Part shown: positions 1 through 4,258 of the stretch, piece by piece
Layout of the letters: each line of letters opens with the position of its first letter
Numbering within the stretch: position 1 is the first letter of the stretch
Assembly (NCBI GenBank): GCA_012729635.1
Contig: JAAYCT010000024.1
Location: 1-64,000 of the forward strand
Reading direction: 5' to 3'
DNA: 64,000 nucleotides
DNA from: Clostridiaceae bacterium
GTDB taxonomy: Bacteria; Bacillota; Clostridia; Saccharofermentanales; Saccharofermentanaceae
Notes under the pieces: generated by a model
What the model saw: only the letters and a program-made list of their open reading frames with translations
Told to the model about the DNA's origin: nothing
The model's database searches: none
Position numbers and translations under genes: made by a program

Positions 1-118
1 CAATAGCCTTTGTATTCAATGAAGCGAATGTATCTAAGGGTTCACTCTGATTCGAGCAAGCTGCTACCTGGAAAACCAAAATGCAAGCTAATACCAGTGC
101 AAGTAAGGATCTTTTCAT
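1..118 (-). CDS. Lipoprotein, N-terminal part only (cut by window edge)
   Basis: Thirty-nine codons are visible before the window ends. They read as a lipoprotein signal peptide: Met-Lys-Arg, a hydrophobic stretch of about 15 residues, then a lipobox ending Val-Ala-Ala-Cys at residues 18-21, followed by a polar Ser/Asn/Gln-rich mature start. The protein is therefore expected to be lipid-anchored outside the membrane. The ATG begins one base after the stop codon of the caspase-like gene. Its ribosome site (GGAGGAG) lies inside the last codons of that gene, so the two are translationally coupled. Nothing can be said about the function of the missing part. Confidence 0.75.
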   Translation of the reverse strand, partial: MKRSLLALVLACILVFQVAACSNQSEPLDTFASLNTKAI

Positions 119-119
119 T

Positions 120-2153
120 TTACACTCCTCCCGTCAACATGGTTGACCTGTCACCGCAAATAACAAAGCTTTTCAGACCTGTCCCGGTGAAATAGGGATC
201 CTCCGCCAAAAAAACGCACGCATCTTCGACAGTAAAACCGTCCTCCATACATTCGGCGAAAAGTTCAGTCCACGTGTTTGCAGCGTTGCATGATACAATA
301 CTGGAAAATCCAACGGCTGTCTGCGCACCTCTGCTTACTGCAACTGTTGGCAAATTATTTCCACCTTCGCCACCAAGACCCGTTGAACATGCGACAAACA
401 GAATGAGTTGCATATTGGTTAGATTAAGGCCGGCTGTATTCATCGAATAACTTCTATACATGACATAGTTGTTCGGATCATCATTCAGTACTAACGCTGT
501 GGCGGTCTGATTGCCATAATTGTCGAATTCTACCCATCCATGGCTTCGACTTATAAACATCGCGCTGGAATCGGTATCCAAATAACTATGAATCGTTGAT
601 ACAGCAAAAGCACCCAAGTTTATGTCTGCACTTGAAAAATCGCAATCCTCAAGGTAATCGCGGGTGGGAATTAACCAGGATAAATGGTCATGTCCAGAAT
701 TAACAACCCCGACCAATCTGGCATTTGGCAAAGAACTCAAGTATTCAATAATCAATTCAGGTTTGTTCGGCGATGGAGCGTCAGAGGAATAGAACTTCGT
801 CTTTTGACTTGAATTCCACTCGGTTGGTTCTTTTATAACAACACCATAATTGTTATATGCTCCTTTCATGCATTGTCTAACAAAAGGAGTTGCATCCAAT
901 TTATACCAGCCGACAGTGTCCGGCTCCGCAGTACGAGATGCATTTATTGATGTGTAATCGGGCTTATTGTTCCATGTTAAATTACTTGAGGTCCAACTGC
1001 CAACTACTCTATAGGCCTTAACATATGGTGTCTGATATTCTTTTTTCTTGATTCGAATATATGCATACGTTACTTTTGCGGGAGAGATAACAGAAGGCAA
1101 ATTAAACTTTATATACGTTCTCATTGCGTTCGTGCCCAGTGCTCCACCGGTCCAAAGATTCTCACTCAAATAGTAGTTGGATGTTGGAAACTGTTGGTCG
1201 ACACAGGTATCATATGTGCTTGATGATCCGGTCACCATAACGGATGGATCAACAATGACAGGGTACACCGTATCCACTGCCTTTAGAAATCCGATGTCCG
1301 CAATTATATATATCTTATATCCGTTCTCCATCGCTTCCATATGATAAGACACTGCGTCTGAGCGTTTGCCGTTGGCATCTACCATATACATAGGGGCAAA
1401 CTCGAACACGGTGTTTCCTTTGCCATCGCAGAGGAAAACATCCCCATCCTTTTCTGCCAGCGAAAGACCTTTTACTCTAAGATCAAAAGTAAATGTGGTC
1501 GGAGCAGATGCGGATTTCAAAATGATGTCTTCCTTGAGCACGTTCGTTTTTACTGTATATGCAATATCGATATCTGGAAGAACATCCTCATAAAGGACAG
1601 CGCGATTGTCTTTCGCAAGGTCCTTATAATAATCGGCATCGGCGGTACTTAACGAATCTGATTTTGCCACACCGCCACTGATGCTTGCTGTTGGCATAGA
1701 AAACGATATCTGACACTCGTCTTTTGTCAGCAAAACCGCCTCAGAAACGCGCAGATTCTCGGCGAAAAATGCTCTCCATGAGTTGGCGGTATTGCAATAC
1801 ATATAGCCGGTTTTAGCGGTATTGCAATACATATAGCCGGTTTTATCGGTAACTTCAGTAACCTCATTATTAATATCCTGAAGCTTACCCTCCGAATTCA
1901 CAAAATGAATGTCTTCCGCGTATCCGACATATCGGTACGTTCCGTCTTCTAACCGATACGTTTTACTGTGAAGTTCTCTCATCGACTCAATTTCTTGGAT
2001 TTGAGAAGAATTATCTGTTGTTACTTCATCAGACATTGTTGCATGAAAATCATTAGTCTCTGCCAGAACAGTGCTCATACCAGATGAGAATAATAAGCAC
2101 AATACCAAGCAACAGAGTCCAACTCTTTTCCATGTGTAGCCTGCTATACCCAC
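120..2153 (-). CDS. Secreted DNRLRE-domain protein with C-terminal caspase-like (clan CD) cysteine peptidase domain
   Basis: 677 residues from a GTG start with GGAGG seven bases upstream. Residues 1-31 form a signal peptide. Residues 50-300 are a beta-rich region ending in a 'YPVIVDPS' segment of the kind that precedes DNRLRE modules in Rhs/wall-associated proteins. Residues 305-471 fit a DNRLRE domain (TYIKFNLP, LTWNNKP, GVVIKEP, LIIEY). Residues 478-677 look caspase-like: hydrophobic strand plus SRSHG (His538) and strand plus VACSTG (Cys589), the expected His-Cys dyad. It probably acts outside the cell as a peptidase, or is a degenerate one. A perfect 30-bp tandem duplication doubles residues 104-113. 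No transmembrane or sorting motif follows the peptidase domain. The next gene encodes a lipoprotein and is coupled to it. Confidence 0.7.
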   Translation of the reverse strand: MGIAGYTWKRVGLCCLVLCLLFSSGMSTVLAETNDFHATMSDEVTTDNSSQIQEIESMRELHSKTYRLEDGTYRYVGYAEDIHFVNSEGKLQDINNEVTEVTDKTGYMYCNTAKTGYMYCNTANSWRAFFAENLRVSEAVLLTKDECQISFSMPTASISGGVAKSDSLSTADADYYKDLAKDNRAVLYEDVLPDIDIAYTVKTNVLKEDIILKSASAPTTFTFDLRVKGLSLAEKDGDVFLCDGKGNTVFEFAPMYMVDANGKRSDAVSYHMEAMENGYKIYIIADIGFLKAVDTVYPVIVDPSVMVTGSSSTYDTCVDQQFPTSNYYLSENLWTGGALGTNAMRTYIKFNLPSVISPAKVTYAYIRIKKKEYQTPYVKAYRVVGSWTSSNLTWNNKPDYTSINASRTAEPDTVGWYKLDATPFVRQCMKGAYNNYGVVIKEPTEWNSSQKTKFYSSDAPSPNKPELIIEYLSSLPNARLVGVVNSGHDHLSWLIPTRDYLEDCDFSSADINLGAFAVSTIHSYLDTDSSAMFISRSHGWVEFDNYGNQTATALVLNDDPNNYVMYRSYSMNTAGLNLTNMQLILFVACSTGLGGEGGNNLPTVAVSRGAQTAVGFSSIVSCNAANTWTELFAECMEDGFTVEDACVFLAEDPYFTGTGLKSFVICGDRSTMLTGGV
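1786..1845. repeat. Perfect 30-bp tandem duplication inside the caspase-like gene
   Basis: Bases 1786-1815 and 1816-1845 are identical. The unit is a multiple of three, so the reading frame is kept and the peptide KTGYMYCNTA occurs twice in a row (residues 104-123). The lack of any divergence between copies suggests a recent slippage event or a contraction/expansion-prone site. Confidence 0.95.
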
Positions 2154-2197
2154 ATCTCTTCCTCCCCAAAATAATCAGTTGTTATCTTCTTTTTGTA

Positions 2198-2225
2198 TTA
2201 TACGCTATATAATTGATTGTGCAAC
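2198..2225 (-). promoter_or_regulatory. Candidate sigma-A promoter for the caspase-like gene
   Basis: On the minus strand a TATAAT hexamer (2198-2203) lies 16 bases downstream of TTGCAC (2220-2225). The -10 is perfect and the -35 is weak. It sits about 45 bases before the GTG start and overlaps the 3' end of the doubtful small ORF at 2205-2390. Confidence 0.5.
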
Positions 2226-2390
2226 ATTAGTATCGACTACGCAAAATGTCGCGGTAAGAGGAGAAATTTCACTCATGATCAGCGAGCTTGAAACAACCTG
2301 ATCAATCGAGGATTCTGCATGCGAAATAAGGAGATGTGCACAAAGCAGCGGGAACAAGGCGAGCATGTACTTCCTGATTTTGAAACGCAC
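2205..2390 (-). CDS. Doubtful small secreted protein or gene remnant
   Basis: Sixty-one codons from a GTG (AGGAGAG close upstream), or from an ATG at 2366. The N-terminus is hydrophobic (MLALFPLLCAHLLISHAES) and looks like a signal peptide. The remainder (SSSLIMSEISPLTATFCVV) vaguely resembles the start of small secreted Clostridia proteins, but the ORF stops after about 35 mature residues. A good -10 hexamer for the downstream gene overlaps its end. It may be a truncated remnant or chance. No function is proposed. Confidence 0.2.
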   Translation of the reverse strand: MRFKIRKYMLALFPLLCAHLLISHAESSIDQVVSSSLIMSEISPLTATFCVVDTNVAQSII

Positions 2391-2460
2391 GCTCTCCTAA
2401 AAATGGAAGAATAAACCCATTTTCTGGTTGAAGTTTACCTCAGACATGAGTCTCTCGTTA

Positions 2461-2512
2461 CATTCCGAGAGGAAAAAGCGTGCACCGCATGCGTATCCGT
2501 CCTCTCGGAATG
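2461..2512. repeat. 13-bp perfect inverted repeat with 26-base loop
   Basis: CATTCCGAGAGGA (2461-2473) is repeated in inverted form at 2500-2512. The loop contains a GCATGC palindrome. No T-run follows on either strand, so a simple terminator is unlikely. It lies in the 350-base non-coding stretch 2391-2738 between a minus-strand and a plus-strand gene, where it could be a regulator site or a structured RNA. The rest of that stretch holds only a short GC hairpin at 2597-2612 and no other recognisable gene. Confidence 0.7.
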
Positions 2513-2738
2513 AAAGTAGGCCCTATATGTTTTCATCCTGCCGGTTCAAGTAAAACATCGCACATGGTTGAAAGCAGGCTACCATAAAAAAAGACAAAGG
2601 GCATAGGCCCTTAAAATTACGATTTCAGAGCAATCATTCCGCGGTTCGCACACTATGTTAAAATGGATAAAATTGTCGAAAAGATTTCCCGGGCGTTATT
2701 CTCAACGCGAAAAGGCGAATATAGAGGTAGTGCGATCA

Positions 2739-3527
2739 ATGAAACTGGAAGTTCTATCCGAAATACCCGCTGAACCCTCCCCAAAGACACCGGTGCTGTT
2801 TGTTCATGGCGCCTATCATGGTGCATGGTGCTGGAATGAATTCTTTCTTCCGTATTTTGCGCAAAACGGATATCCCTCATATGCCGTAAGTCTGCAAGGA
2901 CATGGATCAAGTCAAACGGACAAGCGATTAAACGCTTTACGAATATCGGACTTTGTGAAAGATGTCACACAAGTCGCCGGCGATATGCCGATACCGCCGA
3001 TACTGATCGGGCATTCAATGGGAGGTCTTGTTGTTCAGAAGTATCTGGAAAATAATTCGGCACCGTCTGCCGTGTTGATGGCCTCTCTGCCGGTGGGAGG
3101 TATCTTTCGATCAGCGATTCGTATGGCAAAAAATCATCCGTCGGCATTTTTCAAGTCGGTTTTGACGATGGATCTGCACCATTTCATCGGTTCTACCCGG
3201 CTTGCTCGCGAATCATTTTTCTCCGAGGATATGGATCCCAAAGATGTAGACAAGTATTTTTCTCAATTACAAAATGAATCATTTCCGGCATTTCTGGATA
3301 TGTTGATCCTGAACCTTCCTCATCCCCGAAAAATCAATACGCCGTTATTGGTGCTCGGCGCGGAAAACGACAGCGTTTTTTCTCCGAAGGAAGCCGAGAA
3401 GACAGCGAAAGCATATGATGCTCAAATAAGGATCATGGAGAACATGGCTCATGACATGATGTTGGAACGGGACTGGAGAAAAGTTGCGGATCACATTCTG
3501 GACTGGCTTAAGGATAATGGCCTCTAA
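2739..3527 (+). CDS. Alpha/beta hydrolase
   Basis: 262 residues from the ATG at 2739, chosen because AGAGGTA sits just upstream. The frame stays open 84 bases further, but an earlier ATG at 2655 has no ribosome site. The alpha/beta-hydrolase fold is shown by HGAYHGAWCW (residues 23-32, oxyanion region), the nucleophile elbow GHSMGG with Ser93, the acid in GAENDS (Asp211) and the base in NMAHDM (His238). The complete triad suggests an active esterase or lipase-like enzyme. The substrate cannot be read from the sequence. No signal peptide is seen with this start, so it is probably cytoplasmic. It stands alone, with a weak hairpin after it. Confidence 0.85.
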   Translation: MKLEVLSEIPAEPSPKTPVLFVHGAYHGAWCWNEFFLPYFAQNGYPSYAVSLQGHGSSQTDKRLNALRISDFVKDVTQVAGDMPIPPILIGHSMGGLVVQKYLENNSAPSAVLMASLPVGGIFRSAIRMAKNHPSAFFKSVLTMDLHHFIGSTRLARESFFSEDMDPKDVDKYFSQLQNESFPAFLDMLILNLPHPRKINTPLLVLGAENDSVFSPKEAEKTAKAYDAQIRIMENMAHDMMLERDWRKVADHILDWLKDNGL

Positions 3528-3540
3528 AGGTGCCCGGATG

Positions 3541-3561
3541 AACCCATTTTAACCATGGGTT
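3541..3561 (+). terminator. Weak hairpin after the hydrolase gene
   Basis: AACCCAT and ATGGGTT form a 7-bp stem with a 7-base loop, 14 bases past the hydrolase stop. The following TATTTGT tract is only moderately T-rich, so termination may be inefficient. Confidence 0.35.
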
Positions 3562-3751
3562 ATTTGTATCAAAATCAGAGTGCAGTACCGGTGCATAAAT
3601 CGCGCTTTTCGTGGCTTATGCATTGGTGGAGGGAACCTTTTTCGTAATCCGGAGTGAGTGTTATACTTTTATTAGTAATTCATAGAACCCAAAGGAATTT
3701 TCTGCACACGACGCACACCTCGACAATCAACCGCCAAATACAGGAGCGATC

Positions 3752-4258
3752 ATGATGGTAACAAATCACTCAAATAAATCCCCTTTTAGATCAGCGGTCA
3801 TCGCCTCCTCCGTTGCTTTGTTCGCCGTTTTGCTCATCTTTATCGCGATCCTCTATACTCAAGAGATTTTCGGATCAAAGGAAATCGTTTCCGCAACCGT
3901 CACCTATGACGCGGACCCTTATAACGAGGGAAAGAGTGACCCGCACACATATACCATCACGGATGCCGGGGATATTGCTTTTCTGACCGAAACACTCAAA
4001 GAAATCAAGCGACCTCCGGGTGGCGTGAATTGCGGGTTTCGACACGTCGTTCTTCATGTCGTTTATGAAGACGGGCGTAAAGCAAATTTCTATCTTGCGG
4101 GTGACAGTTGCCCGACGATCGCAAAGAACAACCCCGATAACGGTGAAAACCACTATTTTCTTCCTGAGGAGCGACTCTATGAATTTCGAAAGCGAATCAG
4201 CAGGTACATTCCGGAACTGAATGACGACCATAATTGGTGGCTGGAAGCGGTAGGTTGA
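3752..4258 (+). CDS. Uncharacterised membrane-anchored protein
   Basis: 168 residues, with an AGGAG ribosome site a few bases before tandem ATG codons at 3752 and 3755. One hydrophobic helix at about residues 14-35 follows a short basic N-terminus, so the rest should face outward. The outer part starts with a Tyr/Asp-rich strand (VTYDADPY) and contains a conserved-looking core with two cysteines (VNCGFRH and GDSCPT) that could pair. No family was recognised. It is separated by over 100 bases from both neighbours and is probably monocistronic. Confidence 0.6.
   Translation: MMVTNHSNKSPFRSAVIASSVALFAVLLIFIAILYTQEIFGSKEIVSATVTYDADPYNEGKSDPHTYTITDAGDIAFLTETLKEIKRPPGGVNCGFRHVVLHVVYEDGRKANFYLAGDSCPTIAKNNPDNGENHYFLPEERLYEFRKRISRYIPELNDDHNWWLEAVG

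What the first reader, a model, noticed from the sequence alone, without database searches (positions are those of the whole stretch)
120..2153. Secreted DNRLRE module fused to a caspase-like peptidase, coupled to a lipoprotein
Seen: signal peptide, DNRLRE-like region (305-471), then a terminal domain with SRSHG (His538) and VACSTG (Cys589), and a lipoprotein gene starting one base after the stop. Known: clan CD peptidases use this His/Cys arrangement; DNRLRE modules occur in wall and Rhs-type proteins. Inference: an exported protease-lipoprotein module at the surface, possibly activated proteolytically. Most known bacterial caspase-like proteins are intracellular, so an exported one with this architecture is unusual.
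Basis: partly seen in the sequence, partly recalled or inferred. Interest (0 to 1): 0.6.

Follow-up and report, generated by a model that had tools for sequence, protein, structure and literature searches.

The report
Secreted caspase-like protease with lipoprotein partner
A gut-type Clostridia genome carries a secreted, surface-binding protein that ends in a caspase-like protease domain, and in other genomes that domain is nearly always followed by a gene for one family of secreted, mostly membrane-anchored proteins, which looks like a protein weapon or enzyme paired with the antidote that protects its maker.

Summary
The ORF at 120-2153(-) has a signal peptide, a DNRLRE/CBM96 module and a C-terminal domain with H538 and C589, and a lipoprotein ORF starts one base after its stop. 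The contig ends at window base 1, so only 39 residues of the lipoprotein are readable.
The C-terminal domain is CHAT/caspase-related: 12 of 19 relatives weakly match Pfam CHAT, the family profile hits two solved CHAT proteins (E 0.002 and 0.009), and the dyad is conserved (His 19/20, Cys 18/20). No usable structure model was obtained.
The new part is the pairing. In 19 of 19 other loci where it could be tested, in several families of Clostridia, the caspase-like ORF is followed by one homologous family of secreted proteins, mostly lipoproteins, some matching DUF4901 (YcdB/YcdC). Seven of these loci have a broken or truncated protease; all 19 partners are full length. Partner genes also occur alone and in tandem. 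The N-terminal part is shared with RHS proteins and with zincin-tipped proteins.
Best reading: a polymorphic-toxin-like secreted protease with a membrane-tethered cognate inhibitor or immunity protein. Inhibition and target are inferred, not shown.

The parts
120..2153 (-). secreted multidomain protein, 677 aa, GTG start: signal peptide, DUF7948-like region, DNRLRE/CBM96, caspase-like domain
2061..2153 (-). signal peptide, residues 1-31, cleavage after VLA (by eye)
   Evidence: sequence
1245..2015 (-). N-terminal delivery region, residues about 47-303, shared with zincin-tipped and RHS proteins; residues 180-303 match DUF7948 just below its cutoff (26.3 against 27 bits)
744..1223 (-). DNRLRE / CBM96 carbohydrate-binding-type module, residues 311-470
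123..722 (-). CHAT/caspase-like domain, residues about 478-677
540..542 (-). His538 of SRSHG, predicted catalytic
   Evidence: conserved in 19 of 20 relatives aligned
387..389 (-). Cys589 of VACSTG, predicted catalytic
   Evidence: conserved in 18 of 20 relatives aligned
1..118 (-). start of the partner lipoprotein gene (39 aa read, lipobox VAAC, Cys21), cut by the contig end
1786..1851 (-). 30-bp tandem duplication inside the gene (TGYMYCNTAK repeated)

Best explanation
The gene encodes a Sec-exported protein of modular, polymorphic-toxin-like build. A surface-binding N-terminal part (signal peptide, DUF7948-like region, DNRLRE/CBM96) carries an exchangeable C-terminal cysteine-protease domain of the CHAT/caspase type with a His538-Cys589 dyad. 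The gene starting one base downstream encodes the matching lipoprotein, tethered to the outer face of the producer's own membrane, where it binds and blocks the protease and so protects producer and kin. Shown: the architecture, homology to CHAT proteins, conservation of the dyad, exchange of the C-terminal domain, and conserved adjacency of the partner family in relatives. Inferred: proteolytic activity, that the partner is an inhibitor, that the window's truncated lipoprotein belongs to the same family, and that the target lies outside the cell on competing bacteria or host matter.
For: Exchange of the C-terminal domain: the window protein matches L002/L003/L005 only over residues up to 473-476 (30-46% identity) and L004 only over 468-673 (40%); L002 and L005 end in zincins (HEFGHALGWIGH, HELGHALGLAHH), and the same N-terminus leads into RHS repeats in Clostridium pascui. 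Caspase-like: 12 of 19 relatives match Pfam CHAT (best 1.2e-4) and one matches C25; the profile hits solved CHAT proteins 8tl0 (E 0.002) and 8rot (E 0.0088), with the Cys motifs aligned in both and the His motif in 8rot. Pairing: 19 of 19 testable loci, 18 with a gap of 1-64 nt. Antidote-like behaviour: 7 loci have a broken or truncated protease while all 19 partners are full length, with two more such loci found from the partner side; partner pairs beside dead proteases have dN/dS 0.24-0.48; tandem and solitary partners exist, for example 9 partner hits against 2 protease hits in G435 and 3-4 partner hits in G955, G956 and G958, where no protease was found. Precedents: C10 protease-inhibitor operons with lipoprotein inhibitors (PMC2873492), and the membrane-anchored immunity protein TipC with paralogue arrays (PMC6193138).
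Against: No activity, binding or toxicity data. The only structure model (single sequence) has pLDDT 34 and says nothing. The window's own partner is cut after 39 aa, so its family is inferred from position and lipobox. Solitary partner genes could also mean a broad housekeeping lipoprotein family rather than orphan immunity genes. In family f55 the partners are secreted without a lipobox. The two zincin-linked lipoproteins are not detectably related to each other, and the one tested is not related to this partner family, so 'inhibitor' cannot be carried over from one to the other.
Confidence: 0.52

Rival explanations
1. A secreted nutritional or host-directed protease: the lectin-type modules bind mucus, plant or cell-wall glycans, the protease degrades nearby proteins, and the lipoprotein protects the producer from stray proteolysis, as with SpeB-Spi and staphopain-staphostatin. 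Same inhibitor logic, no bacterial target.
For: CBM96, Big_2 and ricin-type lectin modules precede the domain in several relatives; in family f55 the protease is a small stand-alone secreted protein; protease-inhibitor operons of this kind are documented (PMC2873492).
Against: Broken proteases beside intact partners and genomes with partners only fit antagonism better; the delivery module is shared with RHS proteins.
Confidence: 0.25
2. The partner is not an inhibitor but an accessory needed to make the protease: a secretion chaperone, folding helper, activator or membrane anchor.
For: Strict adjacency, close spacing and shared gene order would also follow from a protein needed for folding or anchoring.
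Against: An accessory should decay with its protease; here seven broken or truncated proteases sit beside full-length partners, and many partners have no protease near them.
Confidence: 0.13
3. The domain is a catalytically dead or autoprocessing caspase-like module that releases another part or senses ligands, not a protease acting on other proteins.
For: Two relatives have lost active-site residues (L021 Cys to Glu; L113 both); internal caspase-like domains are autoprocessing in many toxins (PMC3482391).
Against: In the window protein and in nearly all relatives the domain is C-terminal with nothing behind it to release (L054 is the exception), and the Cys is kept in 18 of 20.
Confidence: 0.08

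Closest known systems
Tox-Caspase domains of polymorphic toxins (Zhang et al. 2012, PMC3482391)
   Same: caspase-like domain with His/Cys dyad as the last domain of a Sec-exported, modular protein, with an adjacent gene in the position of an immunity gene
   Different: the immunity families listed there for Tox-Caspase are Imm36 and Imm57; the only lipoprotein immunity family in that collection was Imm65, tied to Tox-JAB-1. The partner here is a secreted, mostly lipoprotein family related to DUF4901
WapA / RHS wall-associated toxins of Gram-positives (e.g. Streptococcus suis WapA, PMC12704120)
   Same: signal peptide plus DNRLRE N-terminal part, variable C-terminal domain, adjacent partner gene; the window's N-terminus aligns with such an RHS protein of Clostridium pascui
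   Different: no RHS repeats and no LysM; 677 aa instead of over 2000
Bacteroides fragilis C10 proteases with Bfi inhibitors; SpeB-Spi; staphopain-staphostatin (PMC2873492)
   Same: secreted cysteine protease gene directly followed by a gene for a small exported or lipoprotein inhibitor that is thought to protect the producer
   Different: C10 and C47 proteases are a different class from the caspase-like fold; Bfi inhibitors of 116-138 aa with staphostatin-like features, not DUF4901-like proteins of about 300 aa
TelC-TipC (PMC6193138)
   Same: membrane-tethered immunity protein facing outward against a toxin that acts outside the cytoplasm; several paralogous immunity genes per locus
   Different: type VII secretion, lipid II phosphatase, transmembrane anchor rather than lipid anchor
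Gingipains (C25) and clostripain (C11), exported clan CD peptidases
   Same: exported, His/Cys dyad, caspase-like
   Different: no comparable lipoprotein partner family known to me; sequence match only to CHAT, with one weak C25 hit

Membership tests
CHAT domain family (Pfam PF12770, clan CD-like) | profile score above the family's gathering cutoff | tested here: not met
   window domain 18.1 bits against 24; 12 of 19 relatives match at E up to 0.1, best 1.2e-4. Filed as CHAT-related, not as a PF12770 member
CHAT domain family (Pfam PF12770, clan CD-like) | His and Cys dyad in H-G and A-C-x-T type motifs after hydrophobic strands | tested here: met
   H538 in 19 of 20, C589 in 18 of 20
CHAT domain family (Pfam PF12770, clan CD-like) | sequence-profile relation to solved CHAT proteins | tested here: met
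   8tl0 E 0.002, 8rot E 0.0088; Cys aligned in both, His in 8rot
CHAT domain family (Pfam PF12770, clan CD-like) | caspase-hemoglobinase fold | tested here: inconclusive
   single-sequence AlphaFold model pLDDT 34, not usable
CHAT domain family (Pfam PF12770, clan CD-like) | peptidase activity | not testable with these tools
   no bench data
DNRLRE / CBM96 | profile match above cutoff | tested here: met
   104.5 bits against 34; 81.4 against 26
Polymorphic toxin system | homologues alike over the N-terminal part with unrelated C-terminal domains | tested here: met
   caspase-like, zincin or RHS after the same N-terminal part
Polymorphic toxin system | stand-alone cassettes of the C-terminal domain | tested here: met
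   L004/L030 in G100, and small secreted forms in family f55
Polymorphic toxin system | immunity gene directly downstream | tested here: inconclusive
   conserved adjacency shown; immunity function not tested
Polymorphic toxin system | toxicity to cells lacking the partner | not testable with these tools
   needs experiment
WapA/RHS proteins | RHS/YD repeats | tested here: not met
   none in the window protein
DUF4901 (YcdB/YcdC repeated domain) for the partner family | profile match | tested here: inconclusive
   6 of 20 relatives match at E up to 0.1, L048 partner above cutoff (35.2 against 27); the window's own partner is cut at 39 aa

The most novel reading that the evidence does not exclude
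A previously undescribed class of extracellular toxin-immunity or protease-inhibitor pair in Clostridia: a secreted CHAT/caspase-type protease neutralised at the producer's membrane by a DUF4901-related lipoprotein, the first inhibitor family dedicated to this branch of caspase-like proteases, with the domain interchangeable with zincins that carry other lipoprotein antidotes.
Probability: 0.4. Interest if true: 0.7.

Novelty: new variant of a known kind. Interest (0 to 1): 0.52.

Why it matters
If the partner is a true inhibitor, it would be a bacterial protein inhibitor for CHAT/caspase-type proteases and an extracellular, lipid-anchored form of immunity, which the 2012 survey of polymorphic toxins recorded for one family only. 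It would also assign a role to a family of lipoproteins otherwise known only as DUF4901-related, present in several copies in some Clostridia, and make secreted proteolysis among them testable with a two-gene system.

Tried and rejected
Single-sequence structure prediction of the C-terminal domain: pLDDT 34, discarded. Plasmid and phage collections hold no relative by tblastn. Phage-defence reading: no PADLOC match. TIMP/NTR-like reading of the zincin-linked lipoprotein: only a weak DUF705 hit, dropped. PepSY naming of the partner: the layout looks similar to me, but no PepSY model matched, only DUF4901, so it is not claimed. A partner-like C-terminal tail in L054 as a fusion: not significant, dropped. 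The solved-structure hit of the partner profile to a viral protein (2h36, E 0.0026) covers 60 residues at an uninformative spot and was not used. The low GC of the gene (0.43 against 0.49 for the window) could mean recent acquisition but was not pursued.

Full report
What is there. The ORF 120-2153(-) encodes 677 aa from a GTG with a strong ribosome-binding-like sequence. It has a signal peptide, an N-terminal region whose second half matches DUF7948 just below cutoff, a DNRLRE/CBM96 module (104.5 bits against a cutoff of 34), and a C-terminal domain with SRSHG (His538) and VACSTG (Cys589), 51 residues apart. One base after the stop begins a lipoprotein gene (lipobox VAAC) of which only 39 residues are present, because the window starts at the end of contig C21. 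A later profile search found no remainder elsewhere in the draft genome.

The terminal domain is caspase-like. On its own it matches Pfam CHAT below cutoff (E 0.002, 18 bits against 24). Twelve of 19 relatives match CHAT and one matches peptidase family C25 weakly. A profile of the 19 matches two solved CHAT proteins, 8tl0 (E 0.002) and 8rot (E 0.0088), with the Cys motif aligned in both and the His motif in 8rot. In the alignment of 20 relatives His is kept in 19 and Cys in 18. The exceptions are L021 (Cys to Glu) and L113 (both lost). A single-sequence structure model was useless (pLDDT 34), so the fold itself is not shown. I call the domain CHAT-related rather than a CHAT member.

The protein is modular. 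In its own family, L002, L003 and L005 align with the window protein only up to residues 473-476, while L004 aligns only from 468 on. L002 and L005 continue into zincins (HEFGHALGWIGH and HELGHALGLAHH). L004 is a stand-alone secreted caspase-like protein. The same N-terminal 470 residues lead into RHS repeats in Clostridium pascui. So one delivery part carries alternative C-terminal domains, which is the mark of polymorphic toxins in PMC3482391. DNRLRE also sits at the N-terminus of the toxin WapA of Streptococcus suis (PMC12704120). In other relatives the domain follows CBM96, Big_2 and ricin-type lectin modules.

The lipoprotein coupling is conserved. Searching 1,166 genomes of Clostridia and other members of the phylum with protein and profile queries gave loci in several families. 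Of the loci, leaving aside the window, L021 (partner cut by the contig end), L064 (disrupted, insertion sequence) and L066 (contig end), 19 could be tested. All 19 have a homologous partner gene downstream on the same strand, 18 of them 1-64 nt after the protease stop; the 19th (L063) has a premature stop in the protease. As a rough expectation, one search lists 57 partner hits in 31 genomes of 1.4-2.8 Mb, so chance adjacency within 100 nt is of the order of 1 in 10,000 or less per locus (my estimate). Partners are about 260-390 aa, lipoproteins in families f1, f17, f18 and f54, and secreted without a lipobox in f55. Six of 20 match DUF4901, the YcdB/YcdC repeated domain (best 1.7e-8), one above the family cutoff.

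Why an antidote. Seven of the 19 loci have a broken or truncated protease (L024a, which lacks a signal peptide and is less certain, L024b, L047, L050, L051, L055, L063), yet all 19 partners are full length. If either gene were equally likely to decay first, seven out of seven has probability 0.008, and the loci were found with the protease profile, which works against finding broken proteases. Some of these loci share a genome or genus, so they are not fully independent. Two further cases, L100 (broken protease) and L113 (active site lost), were found from the partner side. Partner pairs beside dead proteases remain under purifying selection: dN/dS 0.48 for L050/L100, 0.24 for L024b/L055 and 0.27 for L062/L063, where only the L063 protease is broken. 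Partners also stand alone or in tandem: G435 has nine hits against two protease hits, and G955, G956 and G958 have three or four each with no protease found. Solitary immunity genes are usual in polymorphic toxin systems, but a broader lipoprotein family with other roles would look the same, which is why confidence in the inhibitor role is moderate. L021, with the protease Cys lost, also has Tyr where the partner's lipobox Cys should be; this is one case only.

Relation to what is known. PMC3482391 describes C-terminal caspase-like toxin domains, with Imm36 and Imm57 as partners, and only one lipoprotein immunity family (Imm65). Protease-inhibitor operons with lipoprotein inhibitors are known for unrelated C10 proteases (PMC2873492), and an outward-facing membrane-tethered immunity protein with paralogue arrays is TipC (PMC6193138). 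No paper in the library mentions DUF4901. I found no description of this pair, within an open-access library only.

What remains open. No activity, no structure, no target, and the window's own partner is unread beyond its N-terminus. Whether the target is rival bacteria or host and dietary protein is not decided by any evidence here.

Noticed in passing
window 1786-1851: A 30-bp tandem duplication (2.2 copies, 97% match) inside the gene repeats TGYMYCNTAK in frame; relative L002 has a single copy. It is the only tandem array in the window; recent slippage or an assembly artefact.
   Followed up: partly
window 2655-3527: An alpha/beta hydrolase gene (Abhydrolase_6, E 2e-24) is divergently transcribed next to the protease gene.
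   Followed up: no
window 1-4000: GC of the first 4 kb is 0.43-0.44 against 0.49 for the window, so the protease locus may be recently acquired.
   Followed up: no
L027 6784-9659, L028 8067-10777: Zincin-tipped homologues of the window protein are each followed 11 nt later by a lipoprotein gene; the two lipoproteins are not detectably related to each other, and the L027 one not to the caspase partners.
   Followed up: partly
L024 4866-14311: Tandem array in one genome: two caspase-like remnants, each with an intact partner lipoprotein, then further partner lipoproteins and duplicated XRE-type regulator genes.
   Followed up: partly
L063 and L064 (G505:C2): Two caspase-like copies about 23 kb apart carry the same premature TGA; beside the second copy sit a transposase gene and a large RHS/RCC1-repeat protein whose upstream leader resembles that of the partner gene.
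   Followed up: partly
L023 8086-9285: Directly downstream of the caspase-partner pair starts another secreted protein with the same type of DUF7948/DNRLRE-like N-terminus, cut by the contig end.
   Followed up: no
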